Notes under the pieces: model-generated
Database searches by the model: none
The model's input: only the letters and a program-made list of their open reading frames with translations
Told to the model about the DNA's origin: nothing
Position numbers and translations under genes: made by a program
Virus record (IMG/VR): IMGVR_UViG_3300025418_000839
Coordinates: 1-64,000 of that record
Strand: one strand, 5' to 3'
Origin: a virus
DNA: 64,000 nt
Part shown: in pieces, positions 8,739 through 63,727 of the stretch
How the letters are laid out: each line of letters begins with the position of its first letter
How positions within the stretch are numbered: position 1 is the stretch's first letter

Positions 8739-8767
8739 ATCTGCTCCTTATTAGTTACTATACAAGT

Positions 8768-8796
8768 ATTATACTATTTTGGCAATTTGGACACAA
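8768..8796 (-). promoter_or_regulatory. repeated promoter cassette, copy 1
   Basis: Minus strand: TTGTGT (8796-8791), 17 nt, TATAAT (8773-8768). The stretch from the spacer to the SD is nearly identical to copies at 17317-17345, 17537-17565 and 32550-32578. Confidence 0.75.
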
Positions 8797-8810
8797 CCAA
8801 AATTTACCCC

Positions 8811-9215: not shown

Positions 9216-9239
9216 CTAAACCCGCCGAAGCGGGTTTAG
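9216..9239 (-). terminator. terminator of the tmRNA gene
   Basis: Perfect 10-bp stem (minus strand CTAAACCCGC-ttcg-GCGGGTTTAG) with a stable UUCG loop, directly after the tmRNA coding piece. Confidence 0.8.
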
Positions 9240-9484
9240 GTTATTTTCTGTTACGAGGTATAACTACCCTAGGCGCTGTTAGGCTGCCAATGCGAACTGT
9301 TCGTCGTTTGCGTTTACGTTATTTGCTTTTTACGTCTACTCCTGACGTGTTGCCTTTGTCGCTATCTCACCATGTCGAAACCAAATACGGGCCCACCGAA
9401 ATATACTACACAATACACTTCGGTGGACCCGCCGGGGGTCGAACCCGGGTCCACAATGCCTTTGCTAGAAAGGAATTACAACAA
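9240..9484 (-). ncRNA. ssrA: circularly permuted (two-piece) tmRNA
   Basis: Trans-translation RNA. On the minus strand the acceptor part comes first: T arm CCGGG-TTCGACC-CCCGG (9448-9432), acceptor strand CGGGTCC (9431-9425), discriminator A (9424) and CC. A 26-nt spacer follows (9420-9395), then the 5' end of the coding piece GGGCCCG (9394-9388), which pairs over 7 bp with the acceptor strand and gives a G3-U70 wobble, the alanyl-tRNA synthetase identity element. Five bases later comes GGTTTCGACA, the tmRNA D-loop signature. A small stem ACGTC/GACGT (PK1-like) precedes the tag frame ANDEQFALAA-stop (9311-9279); the resume codon may be GTA at 9317 or GCA at 9311. The mature 5' end of the acceptor piece and helix P2 were not resolved. 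Confidence 0.92.
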
Positions 9485-9616
9485 TTACTTGACTGCTTCT
9501 GTGTGCTTGTGCTTCAAGCTCTTCTTTAGCAGTTTAAACCAAAATTTCTTAACTTTATCAAGGTTATGCTCGATTTCGGCCTTGTAAAGTTTACGAACTA
9601 ATTTTTCAACTTTCAT
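9485..9616 (-). CDS. 43-aa basic peptide upstream of tmRNA
   Basis: MKVEKLVRKLYKAEIEHNLD… with 13 Lys in 43 residues. The strong SD AAGGAGG lies 5 bp before the ATG at 9616 and the promoter at 9636-9664 lies 20 bp upstream. Its stop (9487-9485) is just before the tmRNA acceptor region, so both are on one transcript. Helical, possibly RNA-binding; not recognised. Confidence 0.7.
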   Translation of the reverse strand: MKVEKLVRKLYKAEIEHNLDKVKKFWFKLLKKSLKHKHTEAVK

Positions 9617-9635: not shown

Positions 9636-9664
9636 ATTATACATTATTTATTGAATTTGGTCAA
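9636..9664 (-). promoter_or_regulatory. sigma70-type promoter of the tmRNA transcript
   Basis: Minus strand: TTGACC (9664-9659), 17 nt, TATAAT (9641-9636). It overlaps the end of the oxygenase gene at 9648. Confidence 0.8.
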
Positions 9665-13581: not shown

Positions 13582-14300
13582 AGTATAGTATTTATCTTGA
13601 TCAAATTAAGAAACTCTAGTATTTTTATATAGCACCATCCTAGGTCAATTTCAAACCAACGTTTAGCAAAATTTGCACAGGCCGGAAACTCGTGATGATT
13701 ATTGTGCAGTTCTTCACCACAGCCTAGTAGTCCCAAAGGTAAAACATTTGTACTGGTATCGGGCCTATCATAGTTCCTGTAACCAATTTTGTGCCCAAAT
13801 CCAGTGATAGTGGCATTTACAAACAGACTCACGGAAAACATGTGCACCAGCCAGGCCACAATACCTAGCCAGCCAAATAAACCAATGTTTATTGTTAGTA
13901 GTATTAACAGGCCTAATTTTGTATGGCAGTAGACATTCTTTTCTAACCAATTCTCTTTAAAATCACGACTGAAGTGTGCGGTTTCCCAATCGGTATTCCA
14001 ATATTGGTATTCTCTAAAAAAGTTAGGTATTAAACAATGTCCAGTGACCCGCCAAAAACCAGATAATAACGGACTATGCGGATCACCGTGTACATCGGTA
14101 AACATATGATGTATTCGATGTTGGGCAATAAATGGCTTGGGATAGATTCCCTCGGTTATCCAGAACAAAAAACGGAATACATGCTCGACTATAGGATACT
14201 TGATTGTATACTGCCGATGTATCAAGTATCTATGCAGATATATCGATGTTAATACTATACCAAGATGTGCTGTACATATAGTATATACAACAACGTCCAT
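13578..14300 (-). CDS. acyl-lipid/acyl-CoA desaturase
   Basis: 240 aa membrane di-iron enzyme. The three histidine boxes are HRYLIH (23-28), HRIHH (61-65) and HNNHH (199-203), with four hydrophobic segments, as in delta-9-type desaturases. It would introduce a double bond in membrane fatty acids, with electrons from the host. A second copy with the same layout is at 41153. It sits between the radical SAM and Cys-repeat genes with one-base and four-base overlaps. Confidence 0.9.
   Translation of the reverse strand: MDVVVYTICTAHLGIVLTSIYLHRYLIHRQYTIKYPIVEHVFRFLFWITEGIYPKPFIAQHRIHHMFTDVHGDPHSPLLSGFWRVTGHCLIPNFFREYQYWNTDWETAHFSRDFKENWLEKNVYCHTKLGLLILLTINIGLFGWLGIVAWLVHMFSVSLFVNATITGFGHKIGYRNYDRPDTSTNVLPLGLLGCGEELHNNHHEFPACANFAKRWFEIDLGWCYIKILEFLNLIKINTIL
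13589..13596 (-). promoter_or_regulatory. possible late promoter (GATAAATA)
   Basis: Minus-strand GATAAATA seven bases before the ATG at 13581, inside the last codons of the desaturase. It could give a nearly leaderless late mRNA for the Cys-repeat protein, or be chance. Confidence 0.4.
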
Positions 14301-15748
14301 TATGCGCTTTCTACGCGGCTTTTCCCATAAACTTCAACATCATCGATGGTACCAATTTTTTCTGCTACCACTTTAATAGGAATAATCTTCTTAACGGCCT
14401 TTTCCTTGTGTTCGTAGATAGTGCCAAAAATATCCTGGCGTTCTAATGGTAGTGCATCATTTTTAATCAGTGTAGGAATATAACCCGTTATTTTTTCTAT
14501 AGCTAGGGCAAAAAGAGCCACATTGTCTGAATAAGCATTGGCACAAGATATTTCCCAAAACTTATTGTCTAAGAACATACAAGCACCCTTACAGACATGC
14601 AACACTGGGCAACTGGGGCATTCTGCACGATTTGACCAATGTGTTGAAGTTTTGATTGCTACATTATCATAGTCATCTAATGTACCGCCTAGGTGACTTT
14701 CACCGTTTTTGCTGGTTTCTACTGCTGAGACGTTTTGACAGGTTATCACATTGCCACGCAGGTCCACAGCGATTGCACGTTGATCATCCATGCCACATTT
14801 TTGTCCTAGGGTATCTGCTTCTTGGTGTGTTAGTACACTTTTAATAAATCCGTCAATCTTACCTAATTGTCCGGTAAATCCAATACGACCTTGGGTTGAA
14901 AAAATATCCGCAAATGCAGTACGTCTAAAATCAAAATGTTCTTCTAGGGTTTGTAGACTGTTGCTCATACCCTCTTCGTCATAAGCATCAACAATAGAAC
15001 CTTCACCTAACTGTATGTCGGGATTTCCTGTTAGTTCTACAAACCAATCATAAATTGCCTTACGGCTTTTATTTTTAGCATGCAACATGGGGTTGAAACT
15101 GATGCCTTTTTTCAATCGACTCATCATGCGATAAAAACCTAATAGTCTTTTCTTTTGGTCTGGATCATCAAACGGATCTGGTCCGCGAACTGACTGCCCA
15201 GGACCGTCATGTGAGATACTAACTGAAAAATTTAGTGCCATTAACCAATCAATCATTTCGTCGGTTAGAATACTACCGTTGGTAATAACAGAAAATAATG
15301 GTTTACGTTTCCAGTCTTTAAATCTTTCTAATAGTGCTTCAGCTAGGGGTTTGAAAGTTTTCCAATAGACAAATGGCTCACCTCCCCAAAACTCTACCTT
15401 AAGTCCATCTTCTTCACTGAACTCTAATACATCCAATTTGGCAAGAAAAGCATCAATATCTTTCTTACTAGTTTCTGGAGCACGCTCTACAAATTTTTGT
15501 GAACAGTAATCACAGGTGTAGTTACAACTCAGTCCAAGTTGAATTTTTAATAGTTGAATGCCGCGGGATTTTTTAAGAGGACGGTCGCGGTCGAAAGGTA
15601 TATAAGGTTCTAGTCCCTCTATCTTGTATGAACCCTTTGGATATTCGTACAAGTTACCTTGTTCGTCTTTGAGTGTATTGGCTTGATTGTCGTAATAAAA
15701 AATACGTTTATCGTCGGTGCTGCGTTCAGCATGAATTTCAAATAGCAT
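14300..15748 (-). CDS. radical SAM/SPASM enzyme (anSME-like)
   Basis: 482 aa. The radical SAM cluster is CNYTCDYC (Cys75, 79, 82); WGGEPF follows, and the C-terminal SPASM-type region has further Cys (KCGMDD, TCQNVS, CPSCPVLHVCKGACMF, SCANAYSDN) for auxiliary 4Fe-4S clusters. The order resembles anaerobic sulfatase-maturating and peptide-modifying enzymes. A peptide or protein substrate is expected; the nearby Cys-repeat protein is a candidate. The start ATG at 15748 begins the operon. Confidence 0.88.
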   Translation of the reverse strand: MLFEIHAERSTDDKRIFYYDNQANTLKDEQGNLYEYPKGSYKIEGLEPYIPFDRDRPLKKSRGIQLLKIQLGLSCNYTCDYCSQKFVERAPETSKKDIDAFLAKLDVLEFSEEDGLKVEFWGGEPFVYWKTFKPLAEALLERFKDWKRKPLFSVITNGSILTDEMIDWLMALNFSVSISHDGPGQSVRGPDPFDDPDQKKRLLGFYRMMSRLKKGISFNPMLHAKNKSRKAIYDWFVELTGNPDIQLGEGSIVDAYDEEGMSNSLQTLEEHFDFRRTAFADIFSTQGRIGFTGQLGKIDGFIKSVLTHQEADTLGQKCGMDDQRAIAVDLRGNVITCQNVSAVETSKNGESHLGGTLDDYDNVAIKTSTHWSNRAECPSCPVLHVCKGACMFLDNKFWEISCANAYSDNVALFALAIEKITGYIPTLIKNDALPLERQDIFGTIYEHKEKAVKKIIPIKVVAEKIGTIDDVEVYGKSRVESA

Positions 15749-17287: not shown

Positions 17288-17316
17288 GTCAGCTCCTAAT
17301 TAATTACTATACAAGT

Positions 17317-17345
17317 ATTATACTATTTTGGCAATTTTGGGTCAA
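17317..17345 (-). promoter_or_regulatory. repeated promoter cassette, copy 2
   Basis: Minus strand: TTGACC (17345-17340), 17 nt, TATAAT (17322-17317). Spacer and downstream region are nearly identical to copies at 8768 and 32550. Confidence 0.8.
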
Positions 17346-17351
17346 CCAAAA

Positions 17352-17507
17352 TCAAACACCGCAGGCCGCATAAAAACGGGTACGATCAAAGTTATTATTG
17401 TGCTGTCCAGCGGCATTTGCCACAGCAAGAGCGGCTAATTTACGGGCAGTTAGGTCACTGATATAGCTGATTTCTTGGGCTAAAGTAATAAAGTGTTTAC
17501 GGCTCAT
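17352..17507 (-). CDS. 51-aa conserved small protein (MSRKHF family)
   Basis: MSRKHFITLAQEISYISDLT… ending FDRTRFYAACGV. The N-terminal MSRKxF and C-terminal FDRxRFxxACG signatures are shared by a widespread uncharacterised family of small phage/bacterial proteins. SD AGGAG; promoter cassette copy 3 upstream. Confidence 0.8.
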   Translation of the reverse strand: MSRKHFITLAQEISYISDLTARKLAALAVANAAGQHNNNFDRTRFYAACGV

Positions 17508-17536
17508 TTCAACTCCTTGTTAATTACTATACCCAT

Positions 17537-17565
17537 AGTATACTATTTTGGCAATTTTGGGTCAA
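17537..17565 (-). promoter_or_regulatory. repeated promoter cassette, copy 3
   Basis: Minus strand: TTGACC (17565-17560), 17 nt, TATACT (17542-17537). The spacer is identical to copy 2. Confidence 0.75.
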
Positions 17566-17605
17566 CATTTTGGTTGTGGCATTTTTACAACATTTTTTCG
17601 ATACG

Positions 17606-25702: not shown

Positions 25703-25957
25703 TTACGATTTTGCCGGAATCAGTAACCAGCCTTGTCCGGAATGAGTGTGGTACCAAGAATAAAATGGTGCAGGTATAGTTAAGATGCCATCTTGAGCAA
25801 GATAGTGATATTTTGGTAATATTTCGTAGCCGTTGATGGTTACTGTTTGGTTGACGTCTAAGACAATAGTATCATATAAATTATAGAGTGTTTCTACACC
25901 ATTTACTGATACTGCTAATTGTGCCTTAGTAGCCAGCAGATCTGAGAAGTTCTTCAT
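25703..25957 (-). CDS. small hypothetical, beta-rich
   Basis: 84 aa; WYHTHSGQGWLLIP at the C-terminus resembles small phage proteins of unknown role. Overlaps the downstream part of the radical SAM gene by 32 bp. Confidence 0.65.
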   Translation of the reverse strand: MKNFSDLLATKAQLAVSVNGVETLYNLYDTIVLDVNQTVTINGYEILPKYHYLAQDGILTIPAPFYSWYHTHSGQGWLLIPAKS

Positions 25958-27200
25958 ATTCGGGCAAGTACCTTAGTATACTGTTATTCCTACTGGATTC
26001 TAACAATTTGATATAGTTAACCAAATCAGGTAATCGTTCCGATTCATCTGGTTGATTTTGTAAGTAATCTACGTAACTGCGAGCATCTTGTATAATTTGT
26101 TGTTGAGCAAATGCAGGGTGTCTGGTGTTTATGATCTGTTCTGTTGGTGTATGTTCATATCTATTAATCCAATCAGATAATCTAGCAATCACTTGAGATC
26201 TGACTGACATGGGCAACACGCTGGGTCGCATGAACGCAGGATCGTTTAAGAAATTACAACTTTCAACTGATATATTTCGTTGATAAGCATACTCATAAAC
26301 TGTGGCAAGGTGCCACATGGTAAAGATAGTGGGCGTTGTTCTTAATTGTACTAACCAATTGGAATTTTTAGCAACGTCTAACCACTGTTCCATAATCTCC
26401 AGAGTTTGATCAATGTTGCTACCATACCTAACATAGTCATTTAGGGGATGAATGCATTCAACACTTAACCCAAGATTTACCTGTTCAAACTGTGTGAGTA
26501 AGTCAACTACCGTTTGATCCCATACTGTGAGATTGGTTGTAAATCCCACAGTAATTTTTTTATGTAGATTTTCTTCTACCAAAGTTTCTAGTATGCGTTT
26601 AAATGCTGGAGTAATTAGTGTTTCACCGCCAATGAAATGCAAGTACTTAGTGGTCTTACTTTCTCTTAGAGAATCTAAAAAGAAATTAAATTTTATAGGA
26701 TTCTCGCACCAACTGGCCTGTGGCACTTCATTAATTATTCCTATGCGTTTAAATTCGTTGGCAAGTCTACTGCTACTGTTAGGTTCACAAAAAATACAAG
26801 CACTATTACAAAAATTACCTAGATCAATTTGCCAGTCTTGTGGAGTTAGTGTAGTTTCTGTTTTTTTAAATTCTTCTAGCCAAGGACTACTTAACATGGT
26901 ATTTGTAAAGTCATCTAAACGAATTCCTGTTTTAAGTAGTTGCCGTTGTCGTCCACTTACCTTGCCACGTGCTTCCATTTGATGACATTCTCTGCAAGTG
27001 TCCAATAATTCACCATTGAGTAAACTTTGTCGTATGGATGACATACCCTGCTGAAAAAAGTGTAGTGGTGTTTGCTCCTGTATATCGGGCAAGTTATTCC
27101 GGTCTTGCTTTGTGGCCCAACGACAATATTCGTAATGCCCAGAGTTATTGATCCGCATATGGAACCAAGGACTCGAACAAAATCGATCTTTAAATGTCAT
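25926..27200 (-). CDS. twitch-type radical SAM protein
   Basis: 424 aa. The cluster motif CNSACIFC follows LGNFCN near residue 130 and is preceded by an N-terminal Cys region (FCSSPWFHM…CRECHQM) typical of twitch-domain radical SAM proteins. HFIGGE corresponds to the GGE SAM-binding motif. Reaction unknown. It overlaps clpP by 4 bp; a related enzyme lies on the other side of clpP. Confidence 0.85.
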
Positions 27201-32307: not shown

Positions 32308-32520
32308 TTAGATAAAATCGTAAGCATATTCGCCGGTGTCGCCGATTGGGCTAACAATAACCTTGCCTAACCCAAAAGTCTCAGCTAATCTATGGAATAC
32401 TGTACGAGCTTGCGTTTCGGTAATTGTGCGAACAAACAGAGTGCCATTGAAAAACTCTGTGGTCACAGGCTCGTTAGTAAGAGTTACTTTAACCAATTGA
32501 TCTACTAGTGTTTCAAACAT
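32308..32520 (-). CDS. small hypothetical
   Basis: 70 aa; alpha/beta pattern (TQARTVFHRLAETFGLGKVI) with no assigned motif. First gene after promoter cassette copy 4. Confidence 0.6.
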   Translation of the reverse strand: MFETLVDQLVKVTLTNEPVTTEFFNGTLFVRTITETQARTVFHRLAETFGLGKVIVSPIGDTGEYAYDFI

Positions 32521-32549
32521 ACCAGCTCCTTATTAATCACTATACAAGT

Positions 32550-32578
32550 ATTATACTATTTTGGCAATTTTGGCACAA
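32550..32578 (-). promoter_or_regulatory. repeated promoter cassette, copy 4
   Basis: Minus strand: TTGTGC (32578-32573), 17 nt, TATAAT (32555-32550). Same spacer as copies 2 and 3. Confidence 0.8.
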
Positions 32579-32595
32579 CCAAATTTTGGTCGTAA

Positions 32596-32621
32596 AAAAA
32601 GCCCTATTTCTAGGGCTTTTT
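32596..32621 (-). terminator. intrinsic terminator
   Basis: AAAAGCCCTA-gaaa-TAGGGCTTTTTTT on the minus strand, after the phasin-like gene. Confidence 0.85.
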
Positions 32622-32644
32622 GAGTGTTGCTTTTTTACAACAGA

Positions 32645-41984: not shown

Positions 41985-44036
41985 CTATTTTTCATGAGCT
42001 ATGAATTCCCCCGACCAGTTGTCTGGTAGGTCTTGTTGCTTCATAAAGTCACAACGTTCAATCCATATCTTGTAGTATTTGTCCATCTGTCCGCCAAAGT
42101 TGCCTATTAGCTTCTTGCACATGGCGGCGGCTTCATCGAATTTTTTCTGTTTATATAAGGCATGCATGGCATCATGCTGTTGTTTTTCTTTGGTGTAATC
42201 TTCACCCCGAGTACGCAGTACTGTATAGATCAAATCTGCTACAGTTTTGCCTTTTGGTTGTAGGTTATCTAACAGTAAGAAAAAGAAATCATCTTTTGTA
42301 CGGTTGTATGTTTCGGCGCCAACAATGTTTAAGACCCCGTATGCTTTACAACGTGCTTCTAAGCGAGCAGCAGTTGATACCATGTCACCCAGGATGTCAT
42401 AGCTGTGTCGTTCTGTCGAACCCATCTCACCAATAAAGCCAATACCTGTGTTACAGCCCCAGCCCATTGCGGCTGGAGGTAAACCCTGTGCTTCCATTAG
42501 CTTAGTGTACTCATCAACAGCGTCCAACATATCTAGGCCAACTTGAATGATAGTGTGTGCATGGTTGGCGTCATCAATCGGAGCACCGTGTATGTGCATA
42601 CTTGCATCACCTACATACTTGATAACCATACCTTTGTTATCTAGAATAGGACGACTAATACTATCCATATAGCCGTTCATGTATTTTGTAAGTCCAGCTA
42701 CGTCATCACCATAGTGTTCCCCAATTGGAGTAAAGCCGCGCAAGTCACTGAACATAACCGACACGTCTTTGCGTACACCACGTTTGATTAGTTCTGGATC
42801 TTTTTGTAATAGTTCTACAACTTCTTTAGAGCAATAACCAGCAAACTGTTTCTTGATTGCTTGCTTTTGCAGGAATTCGCTTACGAATTTAACCCCATAA
42901 GTATGTAGACAAACCAATACGAGACCACCAACAACCATAGAAACGTCAACGAGCCAAGCATGACTTCTATACAGATAACCAGAAACAGGAATGATCCCGC
43001 CAATAATAACAACGCTTGAAAAAATGCCAACATAAGTCCACCTTGATAAGAAAATTAATATAATACCTAGAGCTACTAACAGCAGAACTTCTCCGCCATC
43101 TGCCCAATCTGGTCTAGTAATAACAGGTCTATCTTTGTTAGCTATTACAGTTCCTAATACGCTTGCTTGTAAATCTTGTGGCAACATTTCGCCCAAACTT
43201 GTAGCAACAGGATTAGCTAGTCCCTGTGCCGAAACTCCAACAATAACTATGTCGCCTTCAAAATCCTTAGGTAAGTCAGTCATACTATAGTGTTCTGGAA
43301 CTAACGACCAGTCAATCCAGATGCGACTCAAGCTGTCTGTAGTAATAGGACCAAACTTTGGAATACGCATCTTTTCAACACCATTCTCGTTTACCTTGAC
43401 CTGAAAGGTTGTGTCTGCGCCGGCTACACGTAAGGTCTCCATAGCAAGACTTGGATACAGCTTGCCGTCATGTGCGGCAACCATTGGCATACGACGCACA
43501 ACGCCATCTACTTCGGGAAGTGTATTAACAAGTCCTACACCAGCAGCTGCAGATTCTACAGCAGGTATGTTAGCAACAATGCCAGGATATGTTACAAAAG
43601 AATCCAGGCCATAAGGTCCAATAACAACAGAGCCTGGGTTTCGTGCTTCATTCCTATTACCTGTTGACCCAACTGACGGAAGAATTGTTGGATATTGTCG
43701 GAGTGCTTGTACGTATTCCACGTCGTGACCCATGCGATCTCGATCAGGAGTAAGAACATTGAACACCACAAGACCAGCATTACGAGAGTATAAGTCTCGG
43801 ATGAACTTAGCATATACATCTCGAGAGAACGGAAATTGTCCATATTTTTCTAAAGCCTTTTCGTCGATATTTACTACACTTACACCTATTGTTTCGGGTG
43901 CCTTACTAGTTACCAGAGTATCAAAATAACGCAATCGAACTGATTCGACAAAAGTAGGATCGGCTATGCGTAGAGCAGTAACAAGAGCTAGTGTTAGTAG
44001 AGCAGTCCAAGGACTAGTAAGTATTTTTTTGAACAT
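41985..44036 (-). CDS. CHASE2-domain class III adenylate cyclase
   Basis: 683 aa. Signal-anchor, periplasmic CHASE2 sensor (about 30-300: VSVVNIDEKALEKYGQFPFS, WIDW, VIVGVSAQGL), three transmembrane helices (310-385), then a class III cyclase. Metal Asp are in MFSDLRGF and KYVGDAS; the substrate-specifying Lys and Asp (YDILGD) indicate ATP. The usual transition-state Asn of the V-N-x-A-x-R motif is Ser (MVSTAARLE). The C-terminal ~50 residues (AMCKKLIGNFGGQMDKYY) resemble the protein at 51883. It ends the curli-linked gene cluster; CHASE2 cyclases often lie beside FecR-domain genes in bacteria. Confidence 0.9.
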   Translation of the reverse strand: MFKKILTSPWTALLTLALVTALRIADPTFVESVRLRYFDTLVTSKAPETIGVSVVNIDEKALEKYGQFPFSRDVYAKFIRDLYSRNAGLVVFNVLTPDRDRMGHDVEYVQALRQYPTILPSVGSTGNRNEARNPGSVVIGPYGLDSFVTYPGIVANIPAVESAAAGVGLVNTLPEVDGVVRRMPMVAAHDGKLYPSLAMETLRVAGADTTFQVKVNENGVEKMRIPKFGPITTDSLSRIWIDWSLVPEHYSMTDLPKDFEGDIVIVGVSAQGLANPVATSLGEMLPQDLQASVLGTVIANKDRPVITRPDWADGGEVLLLVALGIILIFLSRWTYVGIFSSVVIIGGIIPVSGYLYRSHAWLVDVSMVVGGLVLVCLHTYGVKFVSEFLQKQAIKKQFAGYCSKEVVELLQKDPELIKRGVRKDVSVMFSDLRGFTPIGEHYGDDVAGLTKYMNGYMDSISRPILDNKGMVIKYVGDASMHIHGAPIDDANHAHTIIQVGLDMLDAVDEYTKLMEAQGLPPAAMGWGCNTGIGFIGEMGSTERHSYDILGDMVSTAARLEARCKAYGVLNIVGAETYNRTKDDFFFLLLDNLQPKGKTVADLIYTVLRTRGEDYTKEKQQHDAMHALYKQKKFDEAAAMCKKLIGNFGGQMDKYYKIWIERCDFMKQQDLPDNWSGEFIAHEK

Positions 44037-44091: not shown

Positions 44092-46116
44092 TTAAAAGTT
44101 GATGCGTGCCCATGCTTGTATGGCATTGTTTACACCAGAATTAGTTTGCTGAGTAATTGCTTTTAGCAGTATGCTTGAGTTATCAGTTGTCTTATAACTT
44201 AAACTAATCAATTCTGTTTTTTGTTGACGATTGTTAGCACTTAACTCGCTACCAATTGACCAGTCCTTGTCTAATTTTAAGTAATATGCCACACCTGCTT
44301 CACTGGTCCATGTGTGTGAGTTAGTTGGATCATAGGTCATAGCAGTTAATGGGCTGCCAGATTCGGTAACACCATTCATTTGATCATGCTCATAACCTTG
44401 CCCAACAAATGCACGTAGACCACTTAACCAGTCATCTACATTTTTAGCATCTGGTGTGTATAGTCGAGCTGATCCAAAATAGTCATGACCGTTAGTTGTA
44501 CTACTATTACCAAGGCCTAGCGCAGGTAATGTATGATAAGAACTATATTGATTCATAGCATAGCCTAGGTCAAACTTAACTAACCAATCATCTATACTTT
44601 GAATACCATAGATGCCAAACATATCTTTGTATTCGCTACCACCGGCCGAATCACCAGACATATTGCTGTTAGCACGGTTATATTGCCAACCTAATAATAA
44701 ATCACGATCTACAATAAAATCTGCACCAACACCAAACATACCTGTGGTTGCTTTATAGGTATTAATGTTATTAGTCTGCATACCTGTACCGATAATATAC
44801 ACATCAGTATCCTTACCATTACGTAGGCTAATAGCACCATCGTTGATACGAGCACGGCTTAATGGGTCACTAGTCATAGCAGAGTTGATTTGGCTATTAA
44901 CTGTGCTTAACTGATTATACATATCAATACGTGTTGAATACTGTTGGCTTGCTTGACTTGTTTGTTGATTAACAGAATCAACTACTACTGTTGCCACTTG
45001 ATTACCGCCCGTAGTTTGTGTAGTAACAATAGGAGAGCCAGCACTTGTAGTAGTTACAGGAGTACCGTTTGTAGTTGTAGTTGAATTATCACTATAAGTT
45101 GTTACTGTAGTTGGAGTGGTAATAGTAGTAACTGTTACAGGTACGGTAGTAGTTGTTACGGTAGTATATGGAGTTGTTGTAACTGTAGTTGTCTGGACTG
45201 GAGTATAGACATTTGTAGTTACAGTTTTTGTTATCGGCAATGTTGCAGAGGCCTGTCCACGAGCATACGCTGTGTCTTGTGCTGTAGTTGGTGTACCATT
45301 TACACTTGTGCTTGCCACAGCAGATGCACCATAACTAGTTTGGCTAGTAATAACAGGTGCACCATTAGTACTAGTTGTAGTCACGATAGGGGTACCGGCG
45401 GCTGTACTCACTACAGTTGGAGCACTTGGTGCACTTGGTGGTACCGGAGGAGCCGATGGATTACCAGCATTAACCGTTTGATTTGGCTGTGCTATTGGAG
45501 TAAATCCTGCTGAACTAACAGGTACACAAGCACTTGCGGCTAAAGTTACGTTATTACAAGCACCAGCATATACACCAATAATAGCTTGTTGTAAAGAACT
45601 AGCTTGGCTGGTTGATAGTGCATTAAATGAAACGGTATAGGTTATACCAGAACTAACAGTAATACCCTGATAGATACCGTCATAAGATCCAACAGCACCA
45701 TCGTACCATTGACCAGACTGCCAAGTGCCTGCCGCAGCTGGATAAGTACCATTTTGATACCATACACCCCAACCTGTTGGTGCTTGAATAGTTTGTGTTC
45801 CATTATTCGTTGTAACTTGTACCGCACCACCTGCTGACAGACTAGCATTAGTTAACAGGTTTGCGGAACTGCCCGCGGCTGTTACACTAGGATTAGTAAA
45901 AGACCAAAATGCTGGATCTTGTCTAAATGCAAATCCAACATAGTCACTGCCAGAGTTGGCAGCAGTAAATGAGAATGTGTAAGAGTTGTTTACACCTGTT
46001 GCTGGATTTCCTACGTATCCAATGTAACCTGTGGGTAGGTTGCCTAGGCTTTGTGAGTGTGCCGCGAAAGATAGACACACTGAAATGGCCAAGAAGGCCC
46101 GTTTGATTAATTTCAT
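44092..46116 (-). CDS. autotransporter-like outer-membrane protein
   Basis: 674 aa. Signal peptide (MKLIKRAFLAISVCLSFAAHS), an N-terminal beta-rich adhesin-like region (1-210), a Pro/Thr-rich linker of TVTTTT-type repeats (220-400) and a C-terminal ~240-residue region with alternating strands ending in the aromatic ARINF, as in autotransporter/OMP barrels. It could display the N-terminal domain on the cell surface. SD AGGAG; palindrome and late-type element upstream. Confidence 0.75.
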   Translation of the reverse strand: MKLIKRAFLAISVCLSFAAHSQSLGNLPTGYIGYVGNPATGVNNSYTFSFTAANSGSDYVGFAFRQDPAFWSFTNPSVTAAGSSANLLTNASLSAGGAVQVTTNNGTQTIQAPTGWGVWYQNGTYPAAAGTWQSGQWYDGAVGSYDGIYQGITVSSGITYTVSFNALSTSQASSLQQAIIGVYAGACNNVTLAASACVPVSSAGFTPIAQPNQTVNAGNPSAPPVPPSAPSAPTVVSTAAGTPIVTTTSTNGAPVITSQTSYGASAVASTSVNGTPTTAQDTAYARGQASATLPITKTVTTNVYTPVQTTTVTTTPYTTVTTTTVPVTVTTITTPTTVTTYSDNSTTTTNGTPVTTTSAGSPIVTTQTTGGNQVATVVVDSVNQQTSQASQQYSTRIDMYNQLSTVNSQINSAMTSDPLSRARINDGAISLRNGKDTDVYIIGTGMQTNNINTYKATTGMFGVGADFIVDRDLLLGWQYNRANSNMSGDSAGGSEYKDMFGIYGIQSIDDWLVKFDLGYAMNQYSSYHTLPALGLGNSSTTNGHDYFGSARLYTPDAKNVDDWLSGLRAFVGQGYEHDQMNGVTESGSPLTAMTYDPTNSHTWTSEAGVAYYLKLDKDWSIGSELSANNRQQKTELISLSYKTTDNSSILLKAITQQTNSGVNNAIQAWARINF

Positions 46117-62650: not shown

Positions 62651-63727
62651 TTACAAGTTTAACTCTTTTGCTTGCTCATATAGGGCAAAACTAGCTAGAT
62701 TTTTACCTTTTGATTCGCATTGTATATCAAAGTATGGCCAAAAACTCAATGCCCACTCGTTAACCTGACGATTCCAGTAAAAGTCTGAATGTGCTCGTAA
62801 CTTTGCTTTTTTGTAACCTTCTACCAAAAGTGCCGAGTGGTTGGGGGCAGTGAGTGGATCATGTCCCACAAGTACATCTTCGCGGCTGACACTATAATGC
62901 ATAGCAGGACGAACACCACGCCAGCTATCAATAACTCTCGCAACACGTTCGTCCCGTGGGCTAATGTACTCGCCTTCGCGTATCCAGTGATGATGAATAT
63001 CGAGCACAATAGGTACAATATCAGAAATGGTAAGACAATCATTTAACCCCCATGCGTTTTCTTCGTTTTCGATAGTGATACAATTACGGGCTTCTGGCGA
63101 TAGTCGCTGGTATGCACGGCGGATGCCATCTGGACCTTCTCTACCGGCAATATGTACGTTGATCTTAAAATCTTGGAATTCTTTGCCATAACCCATCCAA
63201 CGGGCCATATTGGTGTGATATTCGAACTCCTCTATGGACCTATCCACGATCCCAGGATTACTCGATGCAAGCACAGTAAACTGGCCAGGATGAAAACTAA
63301 GCCTAACATTCCGAGCCTTAGCAATAGCCCCCACTCTCGCAAACGCTTGTTCGGCGTATGATACAACAGAAGAATTGCGCCAAAAGTTAGAAAAATCACT
63401 ATGGGTATAGCAAGGAAGAATATCACTGCTAAGACGCACCATACGTAGAGACTCTGGGAGCTCACTGACCCGCTCCACTAGTAATCTTGTTGATTCGATG
63501 TTTTGAACCATTAGGTCCCATAATCGTTGCTCCGCTACTTCCCTTGTTTGATTATTTAACCATCTGACGGTGGTTGTTCCAGTATTATACTTACGTGCAT
63601 CGTCTTTGGGTTTAAGACCCCCAGTTTGATCAGGACGATCAATCCATTTGCAACAGAAGCCTATTCGTTTAGTGAATGCTTGGATTTTCAATCTCCCAGT
63701 AAGTTGAACCACGTTGTTCTGTTGCAA
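62651..63727 (-). CDS. UV damage endonuclease (UvdE/UvsE)
   Basis: About 345-358 aa. TIM-barrel UvdE: IGFCCKWIDR, LSSDILPCYTHSDF, SFHPGQFTVLASSN, INVHIAG, ITIENEENAW, LDIHHHWI and HYSVSRED with metal-binding His/Glu residues. Nicks DNA 5' of pyrimidine dimers. The open frame starts at a TTG at 63727; another TTG at 63691 is equally possible, so the N-terminus is uncertain and overlaps the upstream gene. Confidence 0.88.
   Translation of the reverse strand: MQQNNVVQLTGRLKIQAFTKRIGFCCKWIDRPDQTGGLKPKDDARKYNTGTTTVRWLNNQTREVAEQRLWDLMVQNIESTRLLVERVSELPESLRMVRLSSDILPCYTHSDFSNFWRNSSVVSYAEQAFARVGAIAKARNVRLSFHPGQFTVLASSNPGIVDRSIEEFEYHTNMARWMGYGKEFQDFKINVHIAGREGPDGIRRAYQRLSPEARNCITIENEENAWGLNDCLTISDIVPIVLDIHHHWIREGEYISPRDERVARVIDSWRGVRPAMHYSVSREDVLVGHDPLTAPNHSALLVEGYKKAKLRAHSDFYWNRQVNEWALSFWPYFDIQCESKGKNLASFALYEQAKELNL

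What the first reader, a model, noticed from the sequence alone, without database searches (positions are those of the whole stretch)
9240..9484. Circularly permuted two-piece tmRNA gene in a phage
Acceptor part precedes the coding part: T arm and acceptor strand at 9448-9425, then a 26-nt spacer, then the 5' end at 9394. The two strands form a 7-bp acceptor stem with G3-U70, the GGTTTCGACA signature follows at the normal distance, and a tag frame ANDEQFALAA-stop is present. Permuted tmRNAs are established for alphaproteobacteria, some betaproteobacteria and cyanobacteria; one in a phage-like genome, with its own promoter and UUCG terminator, appears unusual.
Basis: partly seen in the sequence, partly recalled or inferred. 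Interest (0 to 1): 0.92.

Follow-up and report, generated by a model that had tools for sequence, protein, structure and literature searches.

The report
Two-piece tmRNA gene in a phage
This virus of bacteria carries an intact gene for a ribosome-rescue RNA whose two halves are in swapped order; such genes were already known in phages, but this one belongs to a large, little-described phage group in which the gap between the halves sometimes holds a tiny protein gene.

Summary
Window 9531-9214 (minus) is a full-length match to Rfam beta_tmRNA (186.9 bits, cut-off 84) and tmRNA_permuted (132.1, cut-off 47). ARAGORN calls the same permuted tmRNA with tag ANDEQFALAA. The window lies in a 128,884-bp IMG/VR virus record with 16 tRNAs and no SmpB. 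What looks new: (1) The gene belongs to a mostly phage group of beta-type permuted tmRNAs. Its tag occurs in 17 of ~85,000 bacterial species genomes, 16 of them one-piece; the 17th is probably a phage contig. (2) The gene is led by a sigma-70 promoter and a conserved 43-aa basic protein gene that stops 1 nt before the acceptor piece; at least 16 other distinct phage junctions show this layout. (3) In relatives, not in the window, the intervening segment often holds a small protein gene (DUF2061 in two, E ~1e-20; an ORF43 homologue in one) under purifying selection, while the acceptor stem stays fully paired. The window's own segment is a 27-nt hairpin. No expression data exist.

The parts
9636..9664 (-). 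sigma-70-type promoter TTGACC-17-TATAAT (11 of 12 consensus)
   Evidence: the same kind of site lies in front of some homologous ORF43 genes (L467, L514, L530)
9485..9616 (-). ORF43: 43-aa basic protein MKVEKLVRKLYKAEIEHNLDKVKKFWFKLLKKSLKHKHTEAVK with an AAGGAGG ribosome-binding site; stop codon 1 nt before the tmRNA acceptor piece
   Evidence: 30-member gapless family; at least 16 other distinct phage junctions with the same abutting layout (which lists 17 including the window's own copy); homologue inside the intervening segment of L446; two predicted helices, no significant fold match
9422..9483 (-). acceptor (tRNA-like 3') piece: strand UGUUG (9483-9479) that pairs with CAACA 9352-9348, T arm 9448-9432, acceptor 3' strand 9431-9425, encoded ACC 9424-9422 (then G, not A)
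   Evidence: Rfam alignments, ARAGORN, acceptor covariation
9395..9421 (-). intervening segment (27 nt) expected to be removed; hairpin that continues the acceptor stem (20 pairs over 9431-9388); no ORF
9388..9394 (-). 5' strand of the acceptor stem GGGCCCG, start of the coding piece
9373..9382 (-). GGTTTCGACA signature (D-loop region of the tRNA-like domain)
9279..9311 (-). tag reading frame GCA AAC GAC GAA CAG TTC GCA TTG GCA GCC TAA = ANDEQFALAA-stop
9216..9239 (-). UUCG-capped hairpin at the 3' end, terminator-like, weak U tail
   Evidence: matches the 3' hairpin of RF01850

Best explanation
It is a complete beta-type permuted (two-piece) tmRNA gene of a phage, transcribed with a 43-aa basic protein gene (ORF43) from a sigma-70 promoter. 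Expected working, inferred from the tmRNA family: the precursor folds with the 27-nt intervening hairpin on top of the acceptor stem; host RNase P and 3' nucleases remove it; the host CCA enzyme completes the end; AlaRS charges it through G3-U70; host SmpB (none was found in the phage record) carries it to stalled ribosomes, where ANDEQFALAA is added as a ClpXP-type degradation tag. The likely benefit is to keep ribosomes free while mRNA is being destroyed. Shown here: gene anatomy, pairing, covariation, phage context, ORF43 linkage. Inferred: transcription, cleavage, charging, tagging. The gene belongs to a phage-dominated lineage in which the intervening segment varies widely and in about a fifth of cases holds a small protein gene; this window lacks that.
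For: (ARAGORN and two Rfam models, full length). (7/7 acceptor pairs, G3-U70 in all 23 distinct phage acceptor stems, compensatory changes at pairs 4-7). (virus record, phage genes, 16 tRNAs). (no SmpB; control genomes positive). Searches (quick tree: phage-only clade of 94, SH-aLRT 99; beta-type apart from alpha and Melnitz, 98/96). (tag common in virus contigs; 17 bacterial species, 16 one-piece). (promoter, ORF43 linkage).
Against: No transcript or processing data. The encoded 3' end is ACC-G, so the last A must be added. The terminator U tail is weak. The record is a metagenome-derived virus contig with unknown host, so compatibility with host SmpB and AlaRS is untested. The phage-only clade was not resolved in the careful 48-row tree; bacterial beta permuted genes were sampled mainly from 250 genomes of one order.
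Confidence: 0.9

Rival explanations
1. Interfering tRNA-like RNA: the phage RNA titrates host SmpB or competes with host tmRNA instead of tagging, as proposed for the tag-less tmRNA of mycobacteriophage DS6A.
For: DS6A precedent (PMC4131195; PMC11915505). No SmpB was found in the phage record.
Against: Tag frame, resume region and stop are intact here, and relatives found without reference to the tag keep a tag frame, often the same tag or a near variant such as ANDEKFALAA or ANDSQFALAA; a decoy needs no tag.
Confidence: 0.07
2. Host gene or pseudogene carried by accident: a captured bacterial ssrA (island attachment site, misassembly or prophage edge) with no phage role.
For: ssrA is a common integration site and fragments occur in prophages (PMC9004378, PMC12595487). 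The beta type is found in some Burkholderiales.
Against: Complete gene 9 kb inside a stretch of phage genes; an identical second contig L092 covers 13,084 bp; nearest relatives are all virus contigs, and grouping the window with bacterial beta genes is weakly disfavoured (AU p 0.042); conserved ORF43 layout; covarying acceptor stems.
Confidence: 0.03

Closest known systems
beta_tmRNA (Rfam RF01850), two-piece tmRNA of betaproteobacteria
   Same: Full-length covariance-model match, permuted order, 3' UUCG-type hairpin, ANDE-type tag, short intervening segment (25-43 nt in the bacterial ones sampled)
   Different: Lies in a phage; no TATAAT directly before the acceptor piece, because that place is taken by ORF43; encoded end ACC-G; highest identity is to phage sequences (80%, L021 or L138), not bacteria
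Two-piece tmRNA of Methylophilales phage Melnitz (PMC9004378)
   Same: Phage-borne permuted tmRNA in a 141-kb myophage; the window phage also shares an adenylate/guanylate cyclase with Melnitz at 44% identity
   Different: Melnitz's gene is alpha-type, with tag ANDNYVPVDYALAA and a 142-nt intervening segment, and is reported with a glutamine riboswitch; the window's is beta-type
tmRNAs of mycobacteriophage Bxz1 group and Bacillus phage G (PMC4131195)
   Same: Complete phage-encoded tmRNA with tag
   Different: Not permuted, as far as my own knowledge of these phages goes (not tested here)
Permuted tmRNA with a tRNA gene in its intervening sequence (PMC11915505, nominally archaeal MAG)
   Same: Shows that another gene can sit in the intervening segment
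   Different: RNA gene, single case; phage relatives found here hold protein genes of many families

Membership tests
permuted two-piece tmRNA (RF04321) | covariance-model match above gathering score with acceptor part 5' of coding part | tested here: met
   132.1 bits against 47, 1-213/213
permuted two-piece tmRNA (RF04321) | 7-bp acceptor stem across the intervening segment with G3-U70, T arm | tested here: met
   7/7 pairs and G3-U70 in the window; 23 distinct covarying stems in phage relatives
permuted two-piece tmRNA (RF04321) | resume region and tag frame ending in a hydrophobic degron and stop | tested here: met
   ANDEQFALAA-TAA
permuted two-piece tmRNA (RF04321) | mature RNA in two pieces after removal of the intervening segment, 3' CCA, alanine charging | not testable with these tools
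   needs RNA from infected cells; ACC-G is encoded, so A must be added
beta-type tmRNA (RF01850) | full-length match, better than alpha and cyano models | tested here: met
   186.9 bits against 84; best of its clan
beta-type tmRNA (RF01850) | groups with bacterial beta permuted tmRNAs rather than alpha | tested here: met
   beta-type (phage plus bacterial) versus alpha 98/96; position relative to bacterial beta genes unresolved, AU p 0.042
tmRNA-SmpB system of its own (phage-borne pair) | SmpB gene in the same genome | tested here: not met
   PF01668 absent from the 128,884-bp record; controls ring; record may be incomplete
phage genome | virus record with phage hallmark genes | tested here: met
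   IMG/VR record; virion/tail proteins, ligase, helicase, ribonucleotide reductase, tRNA cluster; no terminase or capsid gene was sought

The most novel reading that the evidence does not exclude
In this phage lineage the permuted tmRNA gene doubles as a landing site for microprotein genes: the intervening segment excised during tmRNA maturation is itself a mini-mRNA. Its Shine-Dalgarno sequence sits just after CCA, inside the stem that joins the two ends of the segment, and its stop codon lies 1 nt before the 5' acceptor strand, so tmRNA processing and microprotein translation compete or are coupled. ORF43, directly upstream of the tmRNA in the window and inside the segment in L446, would be a tmRNA-associated protein, perhaps an RNA-binding partner.
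Probability: 0.4. Interest if true: 0.82.

Novelty: new variant of a known kind. Interest (0 to 1): 0.56.

Why it matters
It corrects the impression that a phage two-piece tmRNA is exceptional, and points to a widespread phage lineage of beta-type tmRNAs with a tag that bacterial permuted tmRNAs almost never carry. The environmental tag that ARAGORN labels 'Uncultured U02' may therefore come from phages (inference). Nested protein genes in the intervening segment, if expressed, would be a new kind of gene-within-an-RNA-gene and could give a reason why a permuted order is kept in phages. It also makes testable whether phages bring tmRNA to keep ribosomes free, and whether the linked 43-aa protein takes part.

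Tried and rejected
blastn of the gene against 50,697 GenBank phages gave only short partial matches, so no isolate with a close relative was found; megablast of 25 kb found none. Search for SmpB in the phage: none. Pfam and PHROGs on ORF43: none; AlphaFold two-helix model, no significant PDB match. The single permuted ANDEQFALAA gene in a bacterial genome (L244) was rejected as bacterial: 3-kb contig with five tRNAs, in a MAG whose own tmRNA is one-piece with another tag, and it falls among phage rows. A first regex for the GGTTTCGAC motif missed many phage forms because they vary there; ARAGORN coordinates were used instead. Papers on protein genes in tmRNA intervening sequences: none found in the held library, which is not a full literature search; Sharkady and Williams 2004 is not held.

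Full report
What is there. On the minus strand, window 9531-9214 matches Rfam beta_tmRNA over the whole model (186.9 bits, gathering 84) and tmRNA_permuted over its whole model (132.1, gathering 47); ARAGORN independently calls a permuted tmRNA with tag ANDEQFALAA. Read base by base: ORF43 stop 9487-9485; UGUUG 9483-9479; T stem 9448-9444/9436-9432; acceptor 3' strand 9431-9425; ACC 9424-9422; intervening segment 9421-9395; acceptor 5' strand 9394-9388; GGTTTCGACA 9382-9373; CAACA 9352-9348; tag 9311-9279; UUCG hairpin 9239-9216. The acceptor stem is 7/7 with G3-U70. The intervening segment is a hairpin that lengthens the acceptor stem to 20 pairs (z -4.3).

The promoter (TTGACC-17-TATAAT, 9664-9636, 11 of 12) lies before a 43-aa gene, not directly before the tmRNA. 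The encoded end is ACC-G. The terminator-like hairpin lacks a good U tail.

Whose gene. The window is part of a 128,884-bp IMG/VR record, 40% G+C, with phage-type ligase, helicase, ribonucleotide reductase, GroEL, virion and tail proteins and 16 tRNAs, no SmpB. No close isolate was found in 50,697 phage records; one protein matches the adenylate/guanylate cyclase of Methylophilales phage Melnitz at 44%. Host unknown; a beta-proteobacterial host is a guess.

Lineage. In a quick tree of 151 mature permuted tmRNAs the window sits in a phage-only clade of 94 (SH-aLRT 99) with bacterial beta genes outside. A careful tree of 48 rows separates beta-type (phage plus bacterial) from alpha-type plus Melnitz (98/96) but leaves the order inside the beta-type open; joining the window to the bacterial beta genes costs 41 log units, AU p 0.042. 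The tag ANDEQFALAA occurs in only 17 of the ~85,000 species genomes, 16 of them one-piece; the one permuted case, L244, is probably a phage contig in a MAG. Beta permuted tmRNA above cut-off was seen in 9 of 250 genomes of the order of Uliginosibacterium. So the gene looks long owned by phages rather than freshly taken from a host; bacterial sampling is limited.

ORF43. Of the 80 kept, 34 carry an ARAGORN permuted tmRNA nearby; in most of those the ORF ends right at the acceptor piece as in the window, in the rest it lies about 40-760 nt upstream or, once, downstream. The abutting set has 17 distinct junctions, the window's own copy included. In 18 of 20 further loci tested with Rfam no tmRNA was found near ORF43, some of them short contigs, so the link is strong but not obligatory. 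In L446 a homologue (alignment score 105, shuffles at most 38) lies inside the intervening segment.

Nested protein genes in relatives. Among 226 phage permuted tmRNAs, 57 hold a ribosome-site-led ORF of at least 20 aa inside the intervening segment, none of 38 bacterial ones; all 57 keep 7/7 acceptor pairs. That set is enriched by a search for such genes; in the set found by tag alone it is 17 of 75 distinct segments against 2.6 expected from shuffles (maximum 6 in 100 rounds). In 41 of 57 the stop codon ends exactly 1 nt before the 5' acceptor strand. Coding evidence: DUF2061 over its full model in L137 and L153 (E 3.5e-20, 3.7e-21); dN/dS 0-0.33 in all but one of the homologous pairs printed, the exception 0.62, with changes concentrated at third positions in most. 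Ends of a segment pair better with each other than with ends of other segments (-13.1 against -8.8 kcal/mol with ORF, -13.4 against -5.3 without), which would place the ribosome site in a stem; the test is weaker for ORF-bearing segments (12 of 47 in the best 5% of swaps), perhaps because their ends resemble one another. Many nested peptides are single hydrophobic stretches (inference: membrane peptides). L333 and L335, near relatives, share the 3' flank but have a 175-nt segment with an ORF and a 62-nt segment without. None of this is in the window's own gene.

Mechanism. The chain from transcription to tagging is inferred from tmRNA biology. The phage must borrow SmpB, AlaRS, RNase P and the CCA enzyme. 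The most likely use is to keep ribosomes recycling while mRNA is degraded; a decoy role as in DS6A is less likely because the tag is kept. Interest: the finding itself is a new member of something known; the lineage context (ORF43 pairing, nested genes) makes it a new variant worth follow-up.

Noticed in passing
L137:3150-3572 (-), L153:6913-7335 (+): Permuted phage tmRNA (104-106 bits) whose 220-nt intervening segment holds a complete DUF2061 membrane-protein gene (Pfam E 3.5e-20 and 3.7e-21); dN/dS 0.11 between the two.
   Followed up: yes
L446 intervening segment; window 9616-9485: A homologue of the window's ORF43 lies inside the tmRNA intervening segment in L446, but directly upstream of the tmRNA in the window.
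   Followed up: yes
L137, L153, L127, L152, L220: Several phage permuted tmRNAs have a changed D-loop signature (e.g. GGATCGATTGGG instead of GGTTTCGACAGGG) and unusual T loops; might reflect altered SmpB or synthetase contacts.
   Followed up: no
L016, L034, L035, L037, L103, L393, L397: Phage permuted tmRNAs with very long tags (about 24-31 aa, e.g. ANADTFDFSAMSFTGNTVRGAANESRFALAA), far longer than the usual 10 aa.
   Followed up: no
L279 (G254:C1:892359-892683): In a 5.3-Mb bacterial genome, a permuted tmRNA-like match with tag GNQPSNLQVMQQFDVPTPANGDQYLNVA and a 5-nt segment groups with phage rows; perhaps a prophage.
   Followed up: no
window 8740-8803, 17289-17352, 17509-17566, 32518-32644; record 65027-65087: A ~60-bp sequence is dispersed in several copies (82-100% identity) through the phage genome.
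   Followed up: no
window 41985-44036 and 25926-27200, 14300-15748, 62651-63727, 44092-46116: Unusual phage cargo: adenylate/guanylate cyclase related to Melnitz, two radical SAM proteins, UvdE UV endonuclease, autotransporter beta-domain protein; GroEL at L269:49-1668.
   Followed up: partly
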